Shown piece by piece: positions 1,694-29,706 of a stretch of 64,000 bases of DNA (the stretch's first letter is position 1; each line of letters starts with the position of its first letter). The notes below the pieces were generated by a model. The model saw only the letters and a program-made list of their open reading frames with translations, did not search any database and was not told where the DNA came from. The stretch covers positions 62,001 to 126,000 of the IMG/VR virus record IMGVR_UViG_3300047553_000365; one strand, given 5' to 3'. Source of the DNA: a virus. The translations under genes were made by a program, and so were the position numbers.

Positions 1694-1714
1694 ATTGTAT
1701 TTCGGTTTTAATTA
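1694..1714 (-). promoter_or_regulatory. Early/middle-type promoter copy 2 (LemA unit)
   Basis: TAATTAAAACCG, AAA, -10-like TACAAT, then 6 nt to the ATG at 1687. The TAATTA part contains the stop codon of the gene ending at 1712. If transcription starts 7 nt after the -10 box, the mRNA starts at the A of ATG and has no leader. Confidence 0.75.
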
Positions 1715-2185
1715 AATTTTTGCAAGTTTGTTTTTAATTTCTACTAACCAAGCATCGTAGTTATTAAACACTGGAATTCCGTAACGCTGACAAACAATGT
1801 CTACATTACCCTTTCTCCAGAATTCATCAGGACAACATACAACCACTGATCTAGTATTTGCATACAGTCCAAGTTCCAGTAATGAAATAGGAGACTTAGT
1901 ATTAGGATCAAAATACAAAGCAATAATGTCTGCCTTATTAAGATGATCTAATTCCCAAGTTACCTGTTCATAGAATTGTGGATTGTTGAGTTCTTGTTTC
2001 CAAGAAGAATCCCAATCGTCTCTACGAGGATTGAAAAATAGAATGTCATATCTCTTAAAATCATTAAGAATTTTGGATTGCCAATTTTCAGCAGCTCCCA
2101 TTTCAATAGAACCTGCTAAGAAAATAGAAGGCCATCTACTAGACTTCTCAGGGATAGCTCTGTTCGGTGCTTGTATTTCTTTCAT
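1712..2185 (-). CDS. Nucleoside 2-deoxyribosyltransferase-like protein
   Basis: The 157-residue protein contains the features of the nucleoside 2-deoxyribosyltransferase-like fold: an N-terminal IFLAGSI strand-turn, a WELDHLNKADIIALYF segment, and SPISLLELGLYANT with the expected catalytic Glu in a helix. Family members cleave or exchange the base on (deoxy)nucleosides or nucleotides. It is the last gene of the unit that carries the nicotinamide phosphoribosyltransferase-like gene, so a role in nicotinamide nucleotide turnover is possible but unproven. An upstream in-frame TTG would give a longer protein overlapping the preceding gene. The ATG at 2185, 4 nt after that gene's stop, is preferred. 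Confidence 0.8.
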   Translation of the reverse strand: MKEIQAPNRAIPEKSSRWPSIFLAGSIEMGAAENWQSKILNDFKRYDILFFNPRRDDWDSSWKQELNNPQFYEQVTWELDHLNKADIIALYFDPNTKSPISLLELGLYANTRSVVVCCPDEFWRKGNVDIVCQRYGIPVFNNYDAWLVEIKNKLAKI

Positions 2186-2189
2186 ATCA

Positions 2190-2495
2190 TCAGATAAATT
2201 GTTTAACGATTGCTCCAATAACGATTGCGGCAGTAGGTTTAGCAATACCAATAGAAACGGTATGAATCACCGATTCCAGATAAGACCTATCATCCTTCAA
2301 ATCTTCTTTTTTAATTTGATAAGTAAGATATTGTGCAATCATAATTACTCCAATAGCCTGTGCAACACTAAGAGGACTTAGAGGAAACATAGGAACTAGA
2401 AACCATTCCCACAATAGAGAGAATGCATATCCACTATATATGGTGAATAGAACATATAGAACTACTCCAAATACGATTTTAAGTAATGTTTTCAT
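2190..2495 (-). CDS. Small membrane protein
   Basis: The 101-residue protein is mostly hydrophobic with two to three predicted membrane segments (about residues 4-26, 35-55 and 78-98). It sits between the nicotinamide phosphoribosyltransferase-like gene (4-nt gap) and the deoxyribosyltransferase-like gene (4-nt gap) in one transcription unit. No family was recognised. Confidence 0.75.
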   Translation of the reverse strand: MKTLLKIVFGVVLYVLFTIYSGYAFSLLWEWFLVPMFPLSPLSVAQAIGVIMIAQYLTYQIKKEDLKDDRSYLESVIHTVSIGIAKPTAAIVIGAIVKQFI

Positions 2496-2499
2496 ATGA

Positions 2500-4107
2500 T
2501 TAAAAGTTCTTTGCTACAGTTGCACGAATCTCTGCCAAAGTGTATTCCTTGGTAAGCTTACCATTAGAGAACACTTGCTTGAATGCACAGTTCTTAACTT
2601 CATCCCAAGTTGCTTGATCCTTAAGAATAAAGTTACCATCATCTTCATAGACAGCAGTAAGACCCTTTGCGGATTTCTTAAGACCACTATCAGTCTTAGG
2701 ATCTTTAAAGATTTCAATGCCCACAGTCTTACCACCCTTAAGGACTTCTCCATAAGTAGACTTAACTGCAAATCCATGAGTATCACGGGTAATGATTGCA
2801 TCAGGAGTAACAGCCCCTTGATAGGTAAAGCTACCAATACCATACACAAGGTTAGTGGATGCAAATCCCTTAGCAGCAAGACGCTCACAAATTTCCTTGG
2901 CACGATCAATAGTAATACTATCTCCGTAGATAGCACCAATATGAGAATCAAGTTGCTTATAACCAGTAGAAGTAGTAGTTCCACCGAAGATTTCCCACAG
3001 ACATTGGATCATACCTTTAATTTCATTTTCGGTAAGATCAGCCCTTTCTCCAAGCTTTCCATTGTCGTTATATCTGTATGCGCCATTAGGCATTTTGATT
3101 AGATCGTATTTGTTCCAATCATCGCTTTCAAAGTCTCCAATAGTATATCCAGTAACAATCTTCACTGGATCACCACTATCAGGACGAATAACAACCTTAC
3201 CATCACGATTCATGATGATATCTTTAAGTTGCTTACAGATACCATTAACGGGATCAACAACATTCCAGAAGTCCCAAGTATCACTAACAATGCTAACAAT
3301 TCCAGCAGGATAGATTTCAGAAATCAAACGCTTAAAGGTTCCAACTTCATCTTCCAATCCACCCATACACATAACGCTGTGTTCCGTAGCACTAACACTA
3401 CCACCCACAAGTTCTTTATCACTATCAGCACCATAGTATTGCTCCAAGAAATCAATAGCAGGAACAGTATCAGTTCCAGTAAAGGATAACAAGTGAGCAG
3501 CACCCGACATAGTAGCAGCCTCTAATCCAAAGTGACCACGAAAACTAAAGTCATGACCCTGCCAAGGAACAAACTCAATCATTTCAGGATTGGTTTTCTT
3601 AGCCCAAGTATTAAAGATCTTACGATAGATCAATGCAGTAGTTGCGCTAGTGCATGGACCCCAAACAGTTGTGCTAATAATAGTTTCAATGGCATTAGTA
3701 AACCAGAAGAAACGAGGATCAGTATTATACATCACAAACATTGGAACACGAAGATTAACATTAGAACCTTCTGGCAATGCCCAAATCTCAAGAGGAATAT
3801 AACCCAATGCATGAAGATCACGAATATGTTGCTCTCCAATACCATTAGGCCCAAGGTAGTTATTCAGTCTACGAGTATAAGCCTTAACAACTTCTTCAAC
3901 ATCCTTTTGGAAGAAGTTCTTATTCCAGTCATTAATCAAATATTCCTTAATGAAATATTGCAGACCGAAAAGAATAACCTTGTTAAGTCCTTGAACACGA
4001 CTACCACGGGCAGTCATATTAGAAAAGACCATTTGGCTATTACTAGGGTATTGGCGGCGATGGTCACACTTGTAACCATCATATAGTAGATGCGGGTTGT
4101 TTTTCAT
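2500..4107 (-). CDS. nadV: Nicotinamide phosphoribosyltransferase family enzyme (Nampt or Namat)
   Basis: The 535-residue protein aligns along its length with nicotinamide phosphoribosyltransferase (about 490 residues in animals). It keeps the LFGLQYFIKEYL segment near residue 50, SFRGHFGLE at 188-196, GTDTV at 211-215, the ATEHS stretch with the catalytic His at 243, VSDTWD near 274-279 and IRPDSGDP at 307-314. Classical enzymes join nicotinamide to PRPP to make NMN. A phage branch of the family joins nicotinamide to ADP-ribose pyrophosphate, rebuilding NAD+ in one step. With a Prs-like gene 1 kb upstream, either reading is possible. It lies in the unit started by the promoter at 4333-4353. 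Confidence 0.93.
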   Translation of the reverse strand: MKNNPHLLYDGYKCDHRRQYPSNSQMVFSNMTARGSRVQGLNKVILFGLQYFIKEYLINDWNKNFFQKDVEEVVKAYTRRLNNYLGPNGIGEQHIRDLHALGYIPLEIWALPEGSNVNLRVPMFVMYNTDPRFFWFTNAIETIISTTVWGPCTSATTALIYRKIFNTWAKKTNPEMIEFVPWQGHDFSFRGHFGLEAATMSGAAHLLSFTGTDTVPAIDFLEQYYGADSDKELVGGSVSATEHSVMCMGGLEDEVGTFKRLISEIYPAGIVSIVSDTWDFWNVVDPVNGICKQLKDIIMNRDGKVVIRPDSGDPVKIVTGYTIGDFESDDWNKYDLIKMPNGAYRYNDNGKLGERADLTENEIKGMIQCLWEIFGGTTTSTGYKQLDSHIGAIYGDSITIDRAKEICERLAAKGFASTNLVYGIGSFTYQGAVTPDAIITRDTHGFAVKSTYGEVLKGGKTVGIEIFKDPKTDSGLKKSAKGLTAVYEDDGNFILKDQATWDEVKNCAFKQVFSNGKLTKEYTLAEIRATVAKNF

Positions 4108-4116
4108 ATTTTTATT

Positions 4117-4326
4117 TTAGAGTTTTTTATTAAGTATTTGTTTTTCGTGTTGAAGCATTTTAAATCTTTGAGAATATGCCCATCTGACAATCTTCAAATC
4201 TTTATTCGTAAGACCATTATTAAGATTCGATGTTAGACAGTCCATAATCAGCTTTTGGTTTTCTTTTAATTCTTGTCCAGATTTATTCAAACCTTCAAGT
4301 TTTTTCAGTATCTCGTCTCGATTCAT
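4117..4326 (-). CDS. Small helical protein of unknown function
   Basis: The 69-residue protein is charged and predicted to be helical, with no membrane segment. It is the first gene after the promoter at 4333-4353; its ATG lies exactly 6 nt after the -10-like box. The nicotinamide phosphoribosyltransferase-like gene follows after 9 nt. No family was recognised. Confidence 0.75.
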   Translation of the reverse strand: MNRDEILKKLEGLNKSGQELKENQKLIMDCLTSNLNNGLTNKDLKIVRWAYSQRFKMLQHEKQILNKKL

Positions 4327-4332
4327 GTGGTA

Positions 4333-4353
4333 ATGATATCTCGGTTTTAATTA
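4333..4353 (-). promoter_or_regulatory. Early/middle-type promoter copy 3 (Nampt unit)
   Basis: TAATTAAAACCG, AGA, -10-like TATCAT, 6 nt, ATG at 4326. It overlaps the end of the Api92-like gene and should drive the 69-residue protein, the nicotinamide phosphoribosyltransferase-like enzyme, the membrane protein and the deoxyribosyltransferase-like protein. Confidence 0.75.
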
Positions 4354-5045
4354 CTCACTATCTTCCTCATCATCTTCATCTTCATCAATATATTCAAGCT
4401 TACCAGTAGTTGATTCTCTCTATAATATTCAGGAATTTCTTCATACTTTAACATTACTGCAAATCTAATAGGATCATCAATTTCGATTTCAATGATTTCT
4501 CCATCCTTAATAATAAAGTGTCCATAATTACTACCGATATCTTCATCGGCATACTTCACTTCAATACTTTCTTCTGGAAACATCTTAGACAGCTTTTCAA
4601 TTACTGGTCTAGGAGTTGCCCACGCAGTATCAAATTTAACATGATCCCCATGATTAACAAAGTCATAAGCATTCCACTTAGTTCCCCAATTATCAATACT
4701 CCACTCATACCAAGAAGTGTAACCAGTTTCCTTCTTGGCCTTAATCATATTGATAAGATTTTCGATTCTCTTATCATCCCAATTCTTAATCGCACCATCC
4801 TTTAAGGAATTGATCTTATTAGAATAAGCAATATTTTCAAAAATTCCACCATCCTTTATCTTAAGTCCATCAAACAATACTTCGACAATATCAACAGCAT
4901 GAAATTCACACTGAACATCTTTAAGGATTTTCGGCATGGGTATGATCTTGCTAAAGTCCACACATTGAGTTCCATCCTCTTCTGAGAGTAATGCATTCAA
5001 CACATTCTCGGAAGCTTTAATTATAGTAGTAATATGGTTAGGCAT
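4347..5045 (-). CDS. Api92-like phage protein, C-terminus probably frameshifted
   Basis: The 232-residue protein starts MPNHITT and contains the WYEWSIDNWGTKWNAYD and FDTAWATPRPVI stretches typical of the Api92/YubB ferredoxin-like phage family, whose function is unknown. An in-frame upstream start would run into the preceding Prs-like gene, so the ATG at 5045 is chosen. The last 22 or so residues look unnatural (Leu/Met/Lys-rich). The neighbouring frame from about 4412 to 4351 encodes a coherent acidic tail ending EDDEEDSE. The switch lies at a GAGAGA repeat (4415-4420), so a GA-unit slip may have changed the natural C-terminus. Confidence 0.8.
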   Translation of the reverse strand: MPNHITTIIKASENVLNALLSEEDGTQCVDFSKIIPMPKILKDVQCEFHAVDIVEVLFDGLKIKDGGIFENIAYSNKINSLKDGAIKNWDDKRIENLINMIKAKKETGYTSWYEWSIDNWGTKWNAYDFVNHGDHVKFDTAWATPRPVIEKLSKMFPEESIEVKYADEDIGSNYGHFIIKDGEIIEIEIDDPIRFAVMLKYEEIPEYYRENQLLVSLNILMKMKMMRKIVSN

Positions 5046-5058
5046 AATTTTAGTTTTC

Positions 5059-6018
5059 TTAGTAAAGTGGAAGGCAGGTAAACCTATCAGTAAAGGTATA
5101 ACAGAACTTACCCCAATTCTTTTTACTGTTGGTAGTATAGTAATAGTCAAAGTTTTCTACAATCTTTTGAACCCCCTCTACACAATCAGCATGAGCAGTA
5201 AACAACATCAGCTTACCACAATTCTTCTCACGAAGTTTCTTAGCAAGACCAATGAAGGTTCCACCCATGCAATTAATATCATCAACAATGAGAGTATCCA
5301 GTCTTCCAAGATCATCAGCTTGCACAAAGAAATCCTTAAGACTTCCATCCTTAACATCACGAACCTTTTCACAACGAATAAGTTTAAATTCACAGTTGGT
5401 AAATTTATTACTAAGGTGTTGAATAATTTTACCTACCCGTTTTCCAGCACCAGCATCAGGTTGAACAATATTAAATCTTTTAACTATCGCATCCTTCTTG
5501 GCAATATTAATATACCCTTGCATCGGTTTGAGACAATCCTCAATAACCTTTTCAACATATTCCAATTCATCCTTAACAACAACATTGTTAAGCAATGCAG
5601 GAACAACTTCACTATGCGGACAAAAGATTTCCACACTAGCAAAGCCACAGCCATTAATCATATCAGTAAAGACTTTACAAGTCAAGGGTTCTCCCATATT
5701 ACAAACCCTATCTTGTCTTGCAGCAGGAAAGTAGGGAAGAATCAAATGAATATTCTTAAAGCCCATTCTACGAGCAGCATCATTAGCAAGAATGATTTGA
5801 AATAGATCAGCAATATTATTATAGCGTTGAGTAATAATCAAATCGCCGGGATACTCCACAATAGTAGTAATTTGCAAATGAGGTTCACCCCCCTTAAATT
5901 CAAAATACTTATAATCCAAAACCTTAGTATCAGAAATAGTAGGAGTAAATTCCTCATCTAAATTAATCTGATAGGGAGTAGTTTTAGTTTCCCAATTTAC
6001 ATGAATATGATTTTTCAT
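5059..6018 (-). CDS. prs: PRPP synthetase-family enzyme (Prs or ADP-ribose pyrophosphate synthetase)
   Basis: The 319-residue protein has the length and landmarks of ribose-phosphate pyrophosphokinase. These are YFPAARQDR at 96-104 (ATP site), a conserved His at 135, QPDAGAGKRVG at 186-196 and a PRPP-loop variant VDDINCMGGT at 245-254 (usual form VDDMIDTGGT). The N-terminal ATP loop reads FKGGE instead of the common FSDGE. Normal enzymes make PRPP from ribose 5-phosphate and ATP; a phage branch pyrophosphorylates ADP-ribose instead. The gene sits in the unit begun at 6678, one gene before the Nampt-family unit. Together they form a candidate NAD+-rebuilding pair. Confidence 0.93.
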   Translation of the reverse strand: MKNHIHVNWETKTTPYQINLDEEFTPTISDTKVLDYKYFEFKGGEPHLQITTIVEYPGDLIITQRYNNIADLFQIILANDAARRMGFKNIHLILPYFPAARQDRVCNMGEPLTCKVFTDMINGCGFASVEIFCPHSEVVPALLNNVVVKDELEYVEKVIEDCLKPMQGYINIAKKDAIVKRFNIVQPDAGAGKRVGKIIQHLSNKFTNCEFKLIRCEKVRDVKDGSLKDFFVQADDLGRLDTLIVDDINCMGGTFIGLAKKLREKNCGKLMLFTAHADCVEGVQKIVENFDYYYTTNSKKNWGKFCYTFTDRFTCLPLY

Positions 6019-7108: not shown

Positions 7109-8116
7109 TTACAGATACACAACCTCCATGCCAATCTCATCATCATATTCCCAATCATACCACAAGTCTTGAAGAATATTGAAGGCTACTTCCTTAGTGA
7201 TATAACTAGGAGATACACTATTTTGCACCTGCCTAATAGTCACTTGATCGACACCAGCATCCTTCTTATTCTCAAGATAGGTTTGCACCTTCTTAGTGTA
7301 TGCTTGCAATTCAGATGAATTCTTCTCATCAGTCTTATCAACTTCAAGAACATCTTGTCCCTTCTCATCAACAACAGAAGTTTTGATTTCGTGTGTGAAT
7401 TCTGCAACAACTTCATACTTACAAACACGACACTTTTGGAAATTGCAATCCGTTGGAACGGACACAACATCTTTAGGATTGACCTTAACTAACACAGTCT
7501 TGTTAGCAAAGGTAGAACCATAATCAAAGCTACCACAATGCAGACCAAAGGAACAATGCTTATTACGATCATCATCCACATGACTACGGGAAACTTCAAT
7601 GACTTCTCCCACGCCATTATAGATATGACCATGTTCATCAACCTTACCCTTAATCACCTTAGTTTCCTTATTACCAGAAGCGGAGTAGTAATCATCACGA
7701 ACTCCCTTATAGGCAACAAAGCAACCATCTTCAGTAATTGGCAGTTCCTTATAAGAAAGGAAGTCAGTCAATTCTGCAATAGATTGAGCAGAAGGATTGT
7801 CCTTAAGATTCTTCCAAAAGTTCTCAAAGTGTTCAATTGGAAGACCATCACGAATAATGGACTTAATCTTAGTTGCTAGTGCCTTGGGAAGCTTCTCCCC
7901 TTCATAACTAACATCATCTCCTGCGACCACAAATCCCTTATCGTTAAGCTTACGAGCAGGATTTACAATATCAAGGACAGCCTGTTCTTGCTCATCCTTG
8001 GGAAGTTCAAAGACCTTAACAATACTTGCGTATTTAGGATCAGTCTTTTCAACTCTAACTTTCTCACCACTCTCAAGAATGATGATGATTGCGCTTGCGT
8101 TTGTAATGTATTTCAT
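7109..8116 (-). CDS. rIIB: rIIB-like protein
   Basis: The 335-residue protein keeps the rIIB central signature: LPITEDGCFVAYKGVRDDYY, a VDDDRNKHCSFGLHCGSFDY block, then VKVNPKDVVSVPTDCN and CRVCKYEVV. T4 rIIB works with rIIA at the membrane in exclusion-related and lysis-related phenotypes; the biochemical role is not settled. The gene lies just downstream of rIIA, as in T4, but has its own promoter copy (8140-8160) with a 23-nt leader, unlike most other units in the window. The C-terminal 90 residues are charged and more variable. Confidence 0.9.
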   Translation of the reverse strand: MKYITNASAIIIILESGEKVRVEKTDPKYASIVKVFELPKDEQEQAVLDIVNPARKLNDKGFVVAGDDVSYEGEKLPKALATKIKSIIRDGLPIEHFENFWKNLKDNPSAQSIAELTDFLSYKELPITEDGCFVAYKGVRDDYYSASGNKETKVIKGKVDEHGHIYNGVGEVIEVSRSHVDDDRNKHCSFGLHCGSFDYGSTFANKTVLVKVNPKDVVSVPTDCNFQKCRVCKYEVVAEFTHEIKTSVVDEKGQDVLEVDKTDEKNSSELQAYTKKVQTYLENKKDAGVDQVTIRQVQNSVSPSYITKEVAFNILQDLWYDWEYDDEIGMEVVYL

Positions 8117-8172: not shown

Positions 8173-10155
8173 TTATTTCAGGTTCATAATCTTCCTAATG
8201 TCCTCTCTGGTAAGATTCTTTGAGGCATAAGAATGGCGAATTTGACGCAGAATTCTACCTCTGCAAGAATCTTCCGAAAAAATTCTACGCATAACTTTAT
8301 CAATCTTATCAAGTTTTTGTTGTCTAATATTGCTATCAGTATATTTCTTAATAGCCTTGGCAGTTCTAGGAGAAGCAGCCCCCAGACAAATATCCTTAAT
8401 CCTTGATTCAACTGCTTCAAGTTCTCTTTGTTCTCTGTGTCTTTCTCGGATTTCATCAGCCTTTTTATTATACTCTTTACTTCCATATTCAATCCATCCT
8501 GCTTCCAGAAGAGATTCAATCATGGCTTTACTATTAGTATAATAATAAAGATTATTAAATCCGTAAGTTGCCTTATTAACAATGGTCTTATATTCCAGTT
8601 CATTAAGATCCGTAACTTGGTCATACCAATCATCGGCGGTATAATCAACTTTAACATTAGGATTGTTCTTAAGAAAATTAGCGATTCTCTCATCAGAATG
8701 TTTAATGAGTTCTTCCGCATTCATAGTATTCTTCCAATTACTATTACGGAAGTAGACAAGAAACTTAGTAGTATCCTTGGCAGTAGTTTGAAGCTTGGGA
8801 AGCTTCATCTTCTTAACATCAATAAAGTCGCAGTCAGTGATATCAATATTCTTATCACCAGCAGCAATCTTAGCAGCCATGTTATTAAACTCTACCTCAG
8901 AGATATAAAGGAATCCTTCATAGTCTAAGCCTTGAAGATTCTTATAGTAACTAATAAGTCTCTTCTTCCAAGAGTTGGTATTCTTAATATCAGGAATGAT
9001 ATGAATAGGCTTTCTCTTACCCACAAGGTTCTTCATTCCATTATAACCATATTGATTAAGTTCCACCATCTTTACGATGTGTCGAGAAGTATAATGAGTA
9101 AGAGGAAAGAGTTGCGTATAGTTATGGGAGAAATATTCCAAAGTGGAAGTCTTACCAAAGGGAACTTCCTGTGTAAGAACTGCACCAAGCTTAGGACAAG
9201 TAATAAGTTCCTTCTCCTGCGCCCTAACTTCATCAATAAACTTAGTAATCTCTACATAAACCTTAGTATTAAGAGCAGTAGATTCAATACGCTCACGGCT
9301 AATGGGAAGAGTAAGCTTACCAATAGGAACATCAATCACAATAATGTGTTCCGATTCCACAGAGAAGGAATAATTTTCGTAACCATAGATCACTCCCCCC
9401 ATTCTAAGGTAAGGATTGTTATAGGTCTGCCTATCGGGAATATCACTAGCCTTGTAAGCTTCAATAGTAAAGTCTCCAATGGTCTTGGTATGCAATGGAA
9501 TTGCAGGAACCGTAACAGTATTGTAAACGATTTCCTTAAACTCGATAGGACTAGTAAAGGTTCTAACGAACTTCTTGGTAGTGTTAATGAAGTTAGCAAT
9601 ATCGCTATTCTTAACATCCACGGAAACTTCAATACCTTGCTCCGTAGTGGGTTCTTCTGAAACCTTATAGATTTCTCCAATGGGAATACCACTACCACTA
9701 GCTCCCAAGGTGCAGACATAAGTTGCCTTAACACCGTTATGGTGACTCACAACATAGTAAGTATCACTATAACAGAATGCAGCCTTACCACCGATACCAA
9801 ACCCACCAATAGAGTTATTCTCTGCGGACTTAGTAGATTCAAAGTAAACAGCAAAGATATTACGAACATCATGTTCATTCAATCCCATTGCATAGTCGCG
9901 CACTCCCCAAACATAACTACCATCACGACTTTCAATAAAGACATTAATGGGTTGAGTAATTCTATACTTAATATGCTCATCCCGTGCATTAGAAATATAC
10001 TCACGAACAACTGCAAGAACCTTATCAGAATAAATCTTATCCCGCATAAAGTATTGAGCCATTTCCATGCCCTTCATGGACATACCCATAATACTCTTAG
10101 AACTCTGCAAGTCCTCAGATACAAATGTTTTCTTAGTGATGATTCCTGTTTTCAT
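8173..10155 (-). CDS. rIIA: rIIA-like GHKL-fold ATPase protein
   Basis: The 660-residue protein (T4 rIIA is 725) starts with a GHKL ATPase domain. The N-box has Glu52, Asn56 and Asp59 (EYISNARDE), the G1 box is DYAMGL at 87-92, and the glycine-rich G2 loop GGFGIGGKAAF is at 117-127. The remainder is a helical, Lys/Tyr-rich C-terminal part. rIIA proteins act with rIIB and resemble type II topoisomerase or Hsp90-type ATPases at the N-terminus. The gene has its own promoter at 10162-10182 with the ATG exactly 6 nt after the -10-like box. The rIIA-rIIB order matches T4. Confidence 0.92.
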   Translation of the reverse strand: MKTGIITKKTFVSEDLQSSKSIMGMSMKGMEMAQYFMRDKIYSDKVLAVVREYISNARDEHIKYRITQPINVFIESRDGSYVWGVRDYAMGLNEHDVRNIFAVYFESTKSAENNSIGGFGIGGKAAFCYSDTYYVVSHHNGVKATYVCTLGASGSGIPIGEIYKVSEEPTTEQGIEVSVDVKNSDIANFINTTKKFVRTFTSPIEFKEIVYNTVTVPAIPLHTKTIGDFTIEAYKASDIPDRQTYNNPYLRMGGVIYGYENYSFSVESEHIIVIDVPIGKLTLPISRERIESTALNTKVYVEITKFIDEVRAQEKELITCPKLGAVLTQEVPFGKTSTLEYFSHNYTQLFPLTHYTSRHIVKMVELNQYGYNGMKNLVGKRKPIHIIPDIKNTNSWKKRLISYYKNLQGLDYEGFLYISEVEFNNMAAKIAAGDKNIDITDCDFIDVKKMKLPKLQTTAKDTTKFLVYFRNSNWKNTMNAEELIKHSDERIANFLKNNPNVKVDYTADDWYDQVTDLNELEYKTIVNKATYGFNNLYYYTNSKAMIESLLEAGWIEYGSKEYNKKADEIRERHREQRELEAVESRIKDICLGAASPRTAKAIKKYTDSNIRQQKLDKIDKVMRRIFSEDSCRGRILRQIRHSYASKNLTREDIRKIMNLK

Positions 10156-13089: not shown

Positions 13090-13356
13090 TCAACATCTGG
13101 GGGTGCATCTCTTACAAGGACAGGAGATGAAGTGAATACAGGATTGTTTAGTTACCTTATCTACACCAGTCCCATTACAACGCTCACATTGTTTATGTAA
13201 ACAATCATTATCTTCATTACTATTTGTCCAAAGAGGTTTGAAATCTTCGAAAGGATCTATCTTATTATCACTTCTCACAAATTCTGAAAAAGTGATTTCT
13301 CCCCTTCCTATAACTTCACTGAGTTTAGGTAATTTATCTTTATCTATATCATTCAT
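13090..13356 (-). CDS. Small zinc-binding protein with DnaJ-like CxxCxGxG motif
   Basis: The 88-residue protein has a disordered acidic N-terminus and a C-terminal cysteine cluster, CERCNGTGVDK followed by CPCKRC, like the zinc-binding repeat of DnaJ. It overlaps the RNA ligase start by 4 nt (ATGA) and is probably translated with it. The binding partner is unknown. Confidence 0.72.
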   Translation of the reverse strand: MNDIDKDKLPKLSEVIGRGEITFSEFVRSDNKIDPFEDFKPLWTNSNEDNDCLHKQCERCNGTGVDKVTKQSCIHFISCPCKRCTPRC

Positions 13357-14435
13357 ATATTAAGTTTGTTTTCCATATATTTTTGAACGAGCTTATCATC
13401 AATGAAGGCTTTGTCAAGCATAGTAAATGCCATGCTTTTCTCTATTCCAGTTCGGAATCTAGTTTGAATTGCTATGGCTTGATCCTTACGAGTATCTAGC
13501 TTCTTTATGTAAGTATCCAACTCATATTCGATATCTTCAACATCCTTACGAAAGTCATTAAAGGCATTCACAACATCTTGCATATAGTCCTTACACTTCT
13601 CTGCAATTTCGTGATCCATAGTATCTTCCACATACTTATAGAATTCGTCATAAGTAGTAGGACGATGAGATTCCATGAAAACACCAAGAACTTGCTTTAC
13701 CCCCTTAACACCAGTAGCAAGAGCATGAAGAGACAAATACCAATCTGCTTTACACTTACGAAGATATTGACCACATTCTGAATACAATACAACACCTTCC
13801 TTACCTTCCCACATCTTTACATCTTCAATACAGTCATGTATAGAATCAAACTCATAACGCTTAGGACGATTCATATACCATGTATCGGCCAATACATCCA
13901 AATAAGATTGAGAAGTCAATTCACCAGTTTCATTGTTTATGATGCCGATAAGTGACAGAGTAGGTTCCTTAGCATTGTTAATAACAATGACATTACTAGG
14001 AGTAGTCCATTCGGTAAGAATCGAATAGTAGTCAGAAAACAGAAAAAGATTGTTTACGAATTTAGAATACTTCTTCTTAAGAAATTCTATTTCCTTACCA
14101 TTTACCATCTGTTCTGCATTAACAGTTCCACGGGTTCTGTGTATGATTTCTTCATTGTGGCATCCCCAGATAAGCAGAGAACCATCCATCTTTTCAATTG
14201 CAGTAAATCCCCCATTGGGAAACTTATTCAAATCAGGCTTTTCAGACCAGTTAAAGAACTTATTAAATCCACGGGAAATAACCTTATGATCGGACTTACG
14301 CACAATCATAGAACGAAACTTAAGATTGTCTTCAGTCCAAGTGCAACGAATATCATTAGGAGTAATAAGGACACAATCATCCCCTCCTATGACACAATCT
14401 TTAAAGTTGAAATTTTCTGTATCGGGCAAATTCAT
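13353..14435 (-). CDS. rnlA: RNA ligase of the T4 RnlA (Rnl1) type
   Basis: The 360-residue protein has nucleotidyltransferase motifs of ATP-dependent RNA ligase 1: motif I EKMDGSLLIW with the adenylated Lys at 82, a LTEWTTP motif III region, EGVVLY as motif IV and RKCKADWYL as motif V. A helical C-terminal domain follows, as in T4 Rnl1 (374 residues). Such ligases seal tRNA cut by anticodon nucleases after end-healing. It starts exactly 6 nt after the -10-like box at 14442 and leads a unit with a zinc protein, a thioredoxin-fold protein and a metallophosphoesterase. Confidence 0.9.
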   Translation of the reverse strand: MNLPDTENFNFKDCVIGGDDCVLITPNDIRCTWTEDNLKFRSMIVRKSDHKVISRGFNKFFNWSEKPDLNKFPNGGFTAIEKMDGSLLIWGCHNEEIIHRTRGTVNAEQMVNGKEIEFLKKKYSKFVNNLFLFSDYYSILTEWTTPSNVIVINNAKEPTLSLIGIINNETGELTSQSYLDVLADTWYMNRPKRYEFDSIHDCIEDVKMWEGKEGVVLYSECGQYLRKCKADWYLSLHALATGVKGVKQVLGVFMESHRPTTYDEFYKYVEDTMDHEIAEKCKDYMQDVVNAFNDFRKDVEDIEYELDTYIKKLDTRKDQAIAIQTRFRTGIEKSMAFTMLDKAFIDDKLVQKYMENKLNI

Positions 14436-25067: not shown

Positions 25068-26425
25068 TAGCTTTCTTCCTCCATGTCAGATTCTCCATTG
25101 TCTCTAGATGCACTTTCCTTAATAACGAAATCAGGATTCTTAAACTTAAATGCTGGTCTAGTAGGCTTGCTTTCAATTCTTACAACAATACCTTCATTAA
25201 CAACAGCATTCTTACTAAGGAAACATTGCTTCTTGAAATAGGTTTCCTTAAGCTTAGTAATGAAGTTTGTTCTCCAATCATCATCCACAGGAATATTAAA
25301 CAGATCCTTGGCCAGTCCGTAGTAATGAATAGGAACAGTTTCCAATCCTCTATCCACACAGAACTCAACCATAGACGGAAGAGAGAATTCGTGCTTTTCC
25401 GTAGAGCTAATATTTCTCACGACACGATAAACATAGAATCCAAGTTCACCCTTAGTTAAACCATAGTCATATCCCTTTTGAACACACTTCTCAGGAGATA
25501 CCCATCCAACAATTTCTCCATAGATAAGATAATCGTCTGGAATGCTGTCCTTAATTCTTTCGGAAATAACAGACCACACACCATTATCATTACCAGTTAA
25601 AATTCTGCTTCTAGATGCATACACATGACGATATTCTGTATTAGGAATACCTACCAAAAATCTGAATGGATTAAATCTCTTCTTACATTCCAGTTCTGCA
25701 AAGATAGCAGATGTGCCATGAAGCTTTTCAGACACAGTAATAATATCATCGGGACTAATAAGAAACATATTCTTACCCAACTGTTCAGTCTTGTAATGAA
25801 AGGCAAATTGATTACCCACAATGCTCTTTTCCGCAGAAGGCTTACGGATAGCACTCTCCACAACATTGTATGCAGAGTTAAGAACCTTTCTAACGGGTCT
25901 TGGAAATATGCCAACGATCTTACCAAAGACTTTACGACACTTATTAGGTGTGCTTTGTGTTTGATTGCTAACTTTAACCTCTGGTCTTACATACTTAGTA
26001 ACCAGTAGATCACTACCCACAGTATCAAATTCTTTACCAAGAGCAAACACAGATTCATTCACCTTGTAATATTCTGCAAGTTTGGAAACCTTAAACACAA
26101 ATCCCTGACTAGGAACTTCACGAAGTCTAATAGCCTTTACACGGCATTGCTTACCAAAGAATCCTTTGGTCTTACCATCGCTATTAAGTTCTGGTCTGTC
26201 CAGAAGATTAGCCCAAGAAAGAAACTTTTTATCAATGCAACATTCCACAGGAAAATACACCAATAGTTCCCCTTCCTGATAAGTGCCTTTTTGAATGATA
26301 ATTTCATTACCGAAAATATCAATCAGAGAAAGCTTATCAGCATTAGGATGATCCTTAATTGTTGGACACTTTACAACTGTGGCCAAATAGTTAGGATCTG
26401 CTGTTTCGGAAATAGTAAGTTTCAT
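25067..26425 (-). CDS. RNA ligase of the Deinococcus Rnl (Rnl5) type
   Basis: The 452-residue protein has an N-terminal OB-like domain (ending about residue 115) and a central nucleotidyltransferase domain. Motif I is SEKLHGTSA with the adenylated Lys at 234, then YGEIVGW, NEGIVVRIE and AFKFKNPDFVIK. This arrangement, OB domain first and KxHGT as motif I, matches the DraRnl/Rnl5 family, which seals nicks with an RNA 3' end. It overlaps a macro-domain gene by 4 nt. The C-terminal tail is acidic. It is the second RNA ligase in the window and from a different family than the first. Confidence 0.9.
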   Translation of the reverse strand: MKLTISETADPNYLATVVKCPTIKDHPNADKLSLIDIFGNEIIIQKGTYQEGELLVYFPVECCIDKKFLSWANLLDRPELNSDGKTKGFFGKQCRVKAIRLREVPSQGFVFKVSKLAEYYKVNESVFALGKEFDTVGSDLLVTKYVRPEVKVSNQTQSTPNKCRKVFGKIVGIFPRPVRKVLNSAYNVVESAIRKPSAEKSIVGNQFAFHYKTEQLGKNMFLISPDDIITVSEKLHGTSAIFAELECKKRFNPFRFLVGIPNTEYRHVYASRSRILTGNDNGVWSVISERIKDSIPDDYLIYGEIVGWVSPEKCVQKGYDYGLTKGELGFYVYRVVRNISSTEKHEFSLPSMVEFCVDRGLETVPIHYYGLAKDLFNIPVDDDWRTNFITKLKETYFKKQCFLSKNAVVNEGIVVRIESKPTRPAFKFKNPDFVIKESASRDNGESDMEEES

Positions 26426-28442: not shown

Positions 28443-29284
28443 ATTCTCATTCTCACATCATCACAAATGCATTCCATAAATTCCAACTCATTCAGAATAT
28501 ATGATGCACATTCTTCTGTTACTCTTCTTTCAGTTCTATGAAAATGACCATGAAATGATTTCTTCGGTTTTGCCAGATCGAAAAGTTTATCATGTAATTT
28601 TCTTTCCATTACACATTCTTCCCAGAGTGTTTTGTCATTAACACACCAAGTAGCTATTCCATCTTTTCTATTTGGACCTAACCAACTAGGAGCAGAATGA
28701 GTTATTAGAACATCACACTCCACCACTTTACTCTCATCAAGATAAAATCGTTCATCGGGCCAATAGTCAACACCTTCAACTCTATATTTTCTATCAATGG
28801 AAATTCCTCCACCGACAAATAGAAACTTTTTACCATTGATAGTCTTTACCGTATAATCAGGTAAAAACTCAATGTTAGAAAGACATGTTATTCTCCAATC
28901 CCCATTAAAGTAATCAGGATTGTCATGATTTCCACGGATGACATACAGTTGTATGTTTCTTTCAGCCAAGACTTCATTTAACTTTGATTGTAATTCAATC
29001 TCATCACCAATCTTGCGCTTGAAACCTATACCATAATCTCCAACTTGAATTATGATACAATCTCTAAAATCTTCTTTAATGATCCTTTCTTTGAATCTAG
29101 TAAATCCTCCATGAAGATCACCAACCACAAGAACCATAGTGTAAAATGTGTAAGGAGCATTTTCCTCCACATTTTTCTTCTTTTTATTCGGGCCTACATT
29201 ATCCCACAAGGGAGATTTATTCCAAGCCTTAATATCATTCACCCTACTAGTCGGGCCTTTTCCACCATGCCATTGTCCTTTCAT
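28439..29284 (-). CDS. Metallophosphoesterase with an N-terminal GKG-type phage extension
   Basis: The 281-residue protein has a complete calcineurin-like set: GDLHGG near residue 55, VGDYGIG near 80, RGNHDNPDYF near 117, THSAP near 195 and HGHFHR near 245. The first 45 residues (MKGQWHGGKGPTSR, then AWNKSPLWDNVG) resemble short free-standing phage proteins with a GGKG start, so this looks like a fusion. It lies between the YopX gene and a receiver-like gene, overlapping both by 4 nt. The neighbours suggest nucleic-acid or nucleotide phosphoester substrates. Confidence 0.88.
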   Translation of the reverse strand: MKGQWHGGKGPTSRVNDIKAWNKSPLWDNVGPNKKKKNVEENAPYTFYTMVLVVGDLHGGFTRFKERIIKEDFRDCIIIQVGDYGIGFKRKIGDEIELQSKLNEVLAERNIQLYVIRGNHDNPDYFNGDWRITCLSNIEFLPDYTVKTINGKKFLFVGGGISIDRKYRVEGVDYWPDERFYLDESKVVECDVLITHSAPSWLGPNRKDGIATWCVNDKTLWEECVMERKLHDKLFDLAKPKKSFHGHFHRTERRVTEECASYILNELEFMECICDDVRMRI

Positions 29285-29706
29285 TGTGATAAAATTTTTC
29301 TTATAATCGGTCTTGCTCTAGCATTTGCAGAATGCACATAAAACTTAGGAATAGGGACTTCCGCAAGCTTACACGCACTCACTAAATATTGAGCGCAATG
29401 CGCTCCTGTCTTAATATCAAAATTCTCCCAATTTTCCATGAGAAATTGGGCTGCTAACTTCTTACTAGTTCTATTTTCGGCTAATTCATATGCCACATCC
29501 CACAGATCATTATCAAAACTGACAACATCAGGAATACCCACGGTATCAATGTAGTTTACAAACTCATCGTAGGATCTTACAATGTCCCACTTCCATACAG
29601 GTATACCAGAATAAACAATCAGATTAGCATCCTCATCCCACAGGTGAGCATGTTCTGGTTGTCTATCATCATCCAAGAATAGAAATCTCTTTTCCTTTAT
29701 ATCCAT
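29281..29706 (-). CDS. Cyclic-phosphate-processing receiver-like domain protein
   Basis: The 141-residue protein is a free-standing receiver-like domain: RFLFLDDDRQPEH at residues 7-19, VVRSYDEF-type segment (DIVRSYDEFVNYI), PDVVSFDNDLWD, TGAHCAQYLVSACK and FYVHSANARARPI. This fits the receiver family predicted from genome context to handle 2',3'-cyclic phosphates in RNA repair, which is not a signalling receiver. The phage has two RNA ligases and a kinase-phosphatase pair, so an RNA end-processing role is plausible. It overlaps the metallophosphoesterase by 4 nt. Confidence 0.78.
   Translation of the reverse strand: MDIKEKRFLFLDDDRQPEHAHLWDEDANLIVYSGIPVWKWDIVRSYDEFVNYIDTVGIPDVVSFDNDLWDVAYELAENRTSKKLAAQFLMENWENFDIKTGAHCAQYLVSACKLAEVPIPKFYVHSANARARPIIRKILSQ

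What the first reader, a model, noticed from the sequence alone, without database searches (positions are those of the whole stretch)
2500..6018. Candidate NAD+-rebuilding pathway: Prs-like and Nampt-like enzymes in adjacent units
A Prs-family enzyme (5059-6018) and a Nampt-family enzyme (2500-4107) lie 1 kb apart. Phages are known to rebuild NAD+ after host defences (such as Thoeris or SIR2-type systems) degrade it. One route uses exactly these two folds repurposed: an ADP-ribose pyrophosphate synthetase and a nicotinamide ADP-ribose transferase. The Prs-like protein has unusual ATP-loop (FKGGE) and PRPP-loop (DDINCMGGT) sequences that may signal a different substrate. A PRPP-plus-NMN route is the alternative.
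Basis: partly seen in the sequence, partly recalled or inferred. Interest (0 to 1): 0.85.

Follow-up and report, generated by a model that had tools for sequence, protein, structure and literature searches.

The report
Phage NAD+-rebuilding enzyme pair (NARP1)
This large phage carries the two enzymes of a recently described pathway that rebuilds NAD+ after bacterial defences destroy it, in a version with an altered lid over the active site and a third, undescribed enzyme gene beside it that recurs next to this pathway in other phages and in bacteria.

Summary
In detail: 5059-6018(-) encodes a Prs-fold enzyme and 2500-4107(-) a Nampt-fold enzyme, 951 bp apart, in a large tailed phage (138.7-kb IMG/VR record). 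The preferred interpretation also holds. The Nampt-like protein is closest in sequence and fold to the SPbetaL1 Namat crystal structures and keeps the catalytic residues and most of the ADPR-PP clamp. The Prs-like protein groups with SPbetaL1 Adps and ICP1 NrsA, away from true Prs. Its 'odd' ATP- and PRPP-loops are traits of that family. An Adps-like gene lies near Namat in 78 of 80 related viral loci. No NMN adenylyltransferase was found in the record. So this is most likely a NARP1 module, a known kind. Two things are new here. First, the window's clade has a 7-residue insertion inside the clamp that removes the Tyr396 equivalent; one close relative lacks it. Second, a PF15891 deoxyribosyltransferase-like gene (1712-2185) recurs beside Namat in phages and abuts it in Bacteroidota chromosomes: a candidate third enzyme. 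Substrate use is inferred, not shown. Haemophilus ducreyi NadV, solved with NMN, nests among Namats, so tree position alone is not proof.

The parts
5059..6018 (-). Adps-like enzyme (predicted ADP-ribose pyrophosphate synthetase), 319 aa, Prs fold
   Evidence: AlphaFold pLDDT 90, best PDB folds are Prs
5884..5898 (-). ATP-loop FKGGE (residues 41-45); family consensus FPGGE, Prs FSDGE
5254..5283 (-). PRPP-loop equivalent DDINCMGGTF (residues 246-255); SPbetaL1 Adps DDLSSFGGTF, E. coli Prs DDMIDTGGTL
2500..4107 (-). Namat-like enzyme (predicted nicotinamide ADP-ribose transferase), 535 aa
   Evidence: AlphaFold pLDDT 91
3988..4017 (-). Selectivity-clamp loop (SCL); Arg37 = Arg40 of SPbetaL1 Namat
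   Evidence: clamp defined in PMC12774641
2782..2835 (-). Selectivity-clamp helix and following loop, GSFTYQ-GAVTPDA-IITRD (residues 425-442)
   Evidence: PMC12774641
2797..2817 (-). Clade-specific 7-residue insertion GAVTPDA (residues 431-437) inside the clamp; Tyr396 equivalent is Ile
3025..3147 (-). Second variable-length loop (residues 321-361) after RPDSGDPVKI; a few residues in SPbetaL1 Namat
   Evidence: low model confidence 346-354
1712..2251 (-). PF15891 nucleoside 2-deoxyribosyltransferase-like (DrHyd/NDT) protein; ATG start at 2185 or TTG at 2251; candidate third component
2190..2495 (-). Small membrane protein between Namat and the NDT-like gene (PHROG 2169); not shown to be part of the pathway
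4350..5045 (-). Api92/DUF1281_C-like protein between Adps and Namat; not shown to be part of the pathway
4117..4326 (-). 69-aa ORF between Adps and Namat, no family match

Best explanation
The two genes form a NARP1 module. [quoted passage not shown] The Nampt-fold enzyme (Namat) then joins nicotinamide to ADPR-PP, giving NAD+ directly. In this clade the lid over the adenine is rebuilt by a 7-residue insertion, while the two residues whose joint loss hurts SPbetaL1 Namat most (Arg40, Phe392) are kept. Shown: sequence, fold, phylogeny, residue conservation and gene linkage. Inferred: both reactions, their substrates and the anti-defence role.
For: Namat: best PDB hit 9w5x/9w5w (500 bits) versus 379 for HdNadV and about 200 for mammalian Nampt; Foldseek puts 9w5x/9w5w on top (TMq 0.84-0.86, 46-47% identity). 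PMC12774641 names these entries. The tree puts the window with SPbetaL1 Namat and ICP1 NrsB, apart from mammalian, Xanthomonas and KVP40 Nampt at 100/100. Catalytic F189, R192, D215, R306, D308 and clamp R40, S391, F392, T398, R399, D400 are kept. Adps: tree with SPbetaL1 Adps and ICP1 NrsA, apart from four true Prs at 100/100. TIGR01251: window 92, SPbetaL1 Adps 106, ICP1 NrsA 98, E. coli Prs 423 bits. The PRPP-loop Thr of all four Prs is replaced, as in SPbetaL1 Adps. Linkage: 78/80 viral Namat loci have Adps within 5 kb; the two others have almost no upstream DNA. No CTP_transf_like (NMNAT) match in the record. SPbetaL1 NARP1 and ICP1 NrsAB have experimental support (PMC12774641; PMC11559045).
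Against: No enzymatic data. HdNadV, solved with NMN, nests in the Namat clade, so clade membership does not fix the substrate, though HdNadV has lost R40, F392 and Y396. The window has lost Y396 and carries an insertion in the adenine site. Namat can also use PRPP in vitro (PMC12774641). Only four true Prs were in the Prs tree, and the record may be incomplete, so absence of NMNAT is weak evidence.
Confidence: 0.85

Rival explanations
1. A PRPP plus NMN salvage pair: the Prs-like enzyme makes PRPP, the Nampt-like enzyme makes NMN, and a host or unseen NMN adenylyltransferase finishes NAD+ (as in NARP2-type phages such as KVP40).
For: HdNadV, solved with NMN, nests inside the Namat clade. The insertion removes one adenine-contact residue. 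Namat has residual PRPP activity (PMC12774641).
Against: The Prs-like protein departs from true Prs at the PRPP loop and in the tree. R40, F392, T398 and D400 of the clamp are kept, while HdNadV has lost R40 and F392. No NMNAT in the record. KVP40, the NARP2-type reference, has no match to the window Prs.
Confidence: 0.08
2. A dual-use pair: the remodelled clamp relaxes selectivity, so the Namat accepts both ADPR-PP and PRPP, or another large donor such as a modified ADP-ribose. This is a variant of, not an exclusive alternative to, the best explanation.
For: Conserved 7-residue insertion exactly at the adenine-contact segment in the window, L002-L011 and L031, while L012, sister of L011, has the ordinary GSYTYQYVTRD.
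Against: Single clamp mutations in SPbetaL1 Namat cost only 1.3- to 1.7-fold (PMC12774641), so the insertion may be neutral. The insert has no aromatic residue, and the model is only fairly confident there (mean pLDDT about 69).
Confidence: 0.2
3. The module is larger than two genes: the neighbouring PF15891 N-glycosidase-like protein acts in the same pathway, releasing ADP-ribose from an NAD-derived signal or adduct for Adps, much as RyDEP feeds NARP1 in phage DyoEdafos. This extends, and does not exclude, the best explanation.
For: 9/80 viral Namat loci, 19/26 viral loci fetched with the NDT-like protein, and 11/80 bacterial Namat loci have both genes within about 5 kb, with overlapping or abutting genes in Bacteroidota. 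The Glu of the LELG motif is kept. Superfamily members act on N-glycosidic bonds of nucleotides, some on NAD+ (PMC9503650; PMC13174449).
Against: In the eight annotated named-phage loci examined the relative is not near an annotated Namat. Many related viral loci lack it. PF15891 enzymes may simply act on nucleotides. The NDT and Namat samples are not phylogenetically independent.
Confidence: 0.3

Closest known systems
NARP1 of Bacillus phage SPbetaL1 (Adps + Namat)
   Same: Same two folds and gene linkage; Namat 52% identical over aligned columns with all catalytic residues; Adps-like PRPP loop (bulky residue before GGTF)
   Different: 7-residue insertion in the clamp, Tyr396 equivalent lost, longer second loop, the two genes separated by two ORFs, an NDT-like gene downstream
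NrsAB of Vibrio phage ICP1
   Same: Linked Adps/Namat pair with in vivo evidence against the Nezha system (PMC11559045); Namat 50% identical
   Different: Ordinary clamp GSYTYQYVTRD; no NDT-like gene recognised in the stretch seen
Haemophilus ducreyi NadV (PDB 9ke8/9keo)
   Same: Nampt fold, 47% identical, nests in the Namat clade
   Different: Clamp residues lost (E40, Q392, R396); solved with NMN
Vibrio phage KVP40 NadV (NARP2 type)
   Same: Nampt fold in a large phage
   Different: 30% identical, true Nampt clade, no Prs-like match in that phage
RyDEP-NARP1 operon of mycobacteriophage DyoEdafos
   Same: A third, ADPR-releasing enzyme beside NARP1 (PMC13232231)
   Different: RyDEP has an RyR domain and cuts O-glycosidic 2'/3'cADPR; the window neighbour is a PF15891 DrHyd/NDT-superfamily protein of unknown substrate

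Membership tests
Namat (NARP1) | Nampt-like catalytic core (F189, R192, D215, H245, R306, D308) | tested here: met
[quoted passage not shown]
   GS-F-T-Y-Q and TRD kept; 7-residue insertion, position 7 is Ile not aromatic
Namat (NARP1) | SCL stacking residue (R/K/Y at third position) | tested here: met
   Arg37 = Arg40
Namat (NARP1) | Phylogenetic grouping with characterised Namat, apart from Nampt | tested here: met
   100/100 split from mammalian, Xcc and KVP40 Nampt; but HdNadV nests inside
Namat (NARP1) | NAD+ made from ADPR-PP and nicotinamide | not testable with these tools
   needs assay
Adps (NARP1) | Prs fold with conserved active-site residues | tested here: met
   Foldseek top hits Prs, TMq about 0.7; D103/R104, H135, D188, K218/R220, D246/D247 invariant among 33 relatives
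Adps (NARP1) | Phylogenetic grouping with SPbetaL1 Adps and ICP1 NrsA rather than Prs | tested here: met
   100/100; only four true Prs in the set
Adps (NARP1) | Linkage to a Namat gene | tested here: met
   window, and 78/80 related viral loci
Adps (NARP1) | Pyrophosphate transfer to ADP-ribose | not testable with these tools
   needs assay
Ordinary Prs | Score above the TIGR01251 cut-off and (D/S)T(G/A)GT-type PRPP loop | tested here: not met
   92 bits against 113; NCMGGT loop
NARP2 / PRPP-NMN salvage | True-Nampt clade and residues at the clamp positions | tested here: not met
NARP2 / PRPP-NMN salvage | Phage NMN adenylyltransferase | tested here: not met
   no PF01467 match in the 138.7-kb record (control genomes 14/14 ring); record may be incomplete

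The most novel reading that the evidence does not exclude
NARP1 in this lineage is a three-enzyme system: the PF15891 DrHyd/NDT-superfamily protein is an N-glycosidase that cleaves N-linked ADP-ribose immune signals or adducts (canonical or N7 cADPR, His-ADPR, ADP-ribosylated bases) into ADP-ribose for Adps, and the remodelled Namat clamp is a second adaptation of the same module.
Probability: 0.2. Interest if true: 0.75.

Novelty: new variant of a known kind. Interest (0 to 1): 0.45.

Why it matters
The pair itself extends NARP1, a known counter-defence, to another group of large environmental phages. The clamp insertion, present in L011 and absent in its near relative L012, is a natural experiment on how Namat chooses ADPR-PP over PRPP. 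The recurrent NDT-like gene beside Namat, in phages and in Bacteroidota, gives a concrete candidate for an upstream ADP-ribose-releasing enzyme, the sort of partner so far reported only for RyDEP in the papers read here.

Tried and rejected
Relatives of the window Prs-like protein sought directly in IMG/VR gave none; they were reached through the Namat loci instead. 'of' with a locus is not accepted, so more true Prs and NadV references could not be gathered that way. NMNAT, Nudix, Macro and NADAR domains were sought in the record and not found. The RyR search rang nowhere, even in controls, so it shows nothing. Considered and rejected: an ordinary Prs; an intein or intron as source of the clamp insert (only 21 bp, in frame, clade-conserved); the promoter scan as evidence for an operon (fewer promoter-like sites than in shuffles). 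A universal link of the NDT-like gene to NARP1 was rejected: in named phages it lies elsewhere. The paper that first defined NARP1 (looked up by DOI from memory) is not held; its content is taken from PMC12774641 and PMC11559045.
Full report
What is there. The window is bases 62001-126000 of a 138,655-base IMG/VR virus record, a tailed phage with T4-like terminase, tail sheath and baseplate genes and rIIA/rIIB homologues. On the minus strand, in transcription order, lie rIIA (8173-10155), rIIB (7109-8116), smaller ORFs, the Prs-like gene (5059-6018), an Api92/DUF1281_C-like gene (4350-5045), a 69-aa ORF (4117-4326), the Nampt-like gene (2500-4107), a small membrane protein (2190-2495) and a PF15891 nucleoside 2-deoxyribosyltransferase-like gene (1712-2185 or -2251).

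Nampt-like protein. Its best solved relatives are 9w5x and 9w5w (500 bits), ahead of 9ke8 (379) and mammalian Nampts (about 200). PMC12774641 names 9w5x and 9w5w; the Foldseek library titles them Namat with nicotinamide and with NAD, and 9ke8/9keo as HdNadV with NMN and with NAM. A confident AlphaFold model (mean pLDDT 91) has the Namat structures as top Foldseek hits. In a 67-row tree the window falls with SPbetaL1 Namat, ICP1 NrsB and other phage proteins, split from mammalian, Xanthomonas and KVP40 Nampt at 100/100. One caution: HdNadV, solved with NMN, nests beside SPbetaL1 Namat in the same clade, so the clade does not by itself fix the substrate. The residues do better: HdNadV has E40, Q392 and R396; true Nampts have A/G392 and K/Q396; the window has R40, S391, F392, T398, R399 and D400 of the Namat clamp together with every catalytic residue (residue roles from PMC12774641).

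The clamp insertion. The published Namat signature is GSX-phi-X-phi-X-phi-TRD, with adenine-contacting aromatics at positions 3 and 7. The window reads GSFTYQ-GAVTPDA-IITRD: seven extra residues (431-437, DNA 2797-2817) and Ile in place of Tyr396. The insertion is shared by L002-L011 and L031 and was in none of the other Namat-like sequences compared. L012, which pairs with L011 at 100/100 in the tree, has GSYTYQYVTRD, and the clamps of 80 bacterial relatives are all of the ordinary length. A DNA pattern fixed to the exact residues GSFTYQGAVTPDAI found two stretches in IMG/VR, one of them on the L002 contig. In SPbetaL1 Namat, single clamp changes cost 1.3- to 1.7-fold and R40A/F392G 16.6-fold (PMC12774641). 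Since R40 and F392 are kept, ADPR-PP use is the likelier reading. The effect of the insertion on selectivity is unknown.

Prs-like protein. It scores 92 bits on TIGR01251 (cut-off 113); characterised SPbetaL1 Adps scores 106, ICP1 NrsA 98, E. coli Prs 423. Some other phage Adps-like proteins pass the cut-off, so the score supports but does not define the group. In a 65-row tree it groups with SPbetaL1 Adps and NrsA and away from four true Prs at 100/100. The family replaces FSDGE by FPGGE-like loops and the Thr of the Prs DTGGT loop by Gly or a bulky residue (SPbetaL1 SSFGGTF, ISP TSYGGTF, window NCMGGTF), and shares a PHSxVxPALxNN motif. The model (pLDDT 90) has the Prs fold.

Linkage. Of 80 IMG/VR loci found with the Nampt-like protein, 78 carry an Adps-like ORF within the 5-kb flank; L008 and L024 lack upstream DNA. 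Of 80 bacterial loci found with the same query, 65 carry an Adps-like ORF within 3 kb, all with Namat-type clamps. The record has no match to NMN adenylyltransferase, Nudix, Macro or NADAR families. This fits the two-step NARP1 route, which needs no adenylyltransferase.

The third gene. The PF15891 protein was found beside Namat from three directions: 9 of 80 viral Namat loci, 19 of 26 viral loci fetched with the PF15891 protein itself, and 11 of 80 bacterial Namat loci, where it often overlaps or abuts Namat or Adps. Only 45 of 50,697 phage records have a relative at all. Against a strict link, eight annotated named-phage loci show it away from any annotated Namat, and the loci are related, so counts are not independent. 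The superfamily (DrHyd in PMC9503650) hydrolyses or transfers N-glycosidic bonds of nucleotides and includes NAD+-acting enzymes; that survey reported only ADP-ribosyl-cyclase-type DrHyd in viruses. I infer, without test, that it may release ADP-ribose or process an NAD-derived molecule for Adps, by analogy with RyDEP (PMC13232231). The candidate substrates named (canonical and N7 cADPR, His-ADPR) rest on my own knowledge of Thoeris signals.

Verdict. A NARP1 module (confidence 0.85): new variant of a known kind, by the clamp insertion and the NDT-like neighbour. Shown: sequence, fold, phylogeny, residues, linkage. Inferred: substrates, reactions, anti-defence role, and any role of the third gene.

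Noticed in passing
window 1712-2251 (-); L192:2538-3008, L182:2528-3001, L127:4929-5429: PF15891 deoxyribosyltransferase-like gene recurs beside Namat/Adps in phages and abuts it in Bacteroidota; not reported in the papers read.
   Followed up: partly
L140-L219 (bacterial genomes): Bacterial Namat-like genes, mostly with Adps-like neighbours; in Bacteroidota they sit in islands whose recurrent neighbours look like NADAR, Macro, KptA, ADP-ribosylglycohydrolase, PARG-like and NrtR-like Nudix proteins (judged by eye from sequence, not checked by HMM).
   Followed up: partly
L009:3723-4244, L011, L012; L090:596-1039: A NADAR gene lies near Namat in three close relatives of the window (Pfam 3.7e-47 for L009), and a Macro-domain gene near it in other phages; neither is in the window's own record.
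   Followed up: partly
L121:2013-2900 and 3582-4493: Namat match split into two same-strand ORFs about 680 bp apart; perhaps an intron, inserted gene or broken copy.
   Followed up: no
L015:4287-4727 and 12 other loci: HAD-phosphatase-like small protein (FDFDGT motif) recurs near Adps/Namat in 13 loci; no Pfam match.
   Followed up: no
PDB 9ke8 /: H. ducreyi NadV nests in the Namat clade with the clamp residues lost: an apparent switch back from ADPR-PP to PRPP.
   Followed up: partly
L084 (CAKLQF020000015.1): Record labelled Acinetobacter phage MD-2021a looks like bacterial chromosome here (fepC, TauE/SafE, AraC regulator) with a prs-nadV-nadM operon.
   Followed up: no
window 29284-29706 (-), 13356-14435 (-), 25070-26425 (-): A cREC cyclic-phosphate-processing receiver domain and two RNA ligases, suggesting an RNA-repair set that may link to ADP-ribose chemistry.
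   Followed up: no
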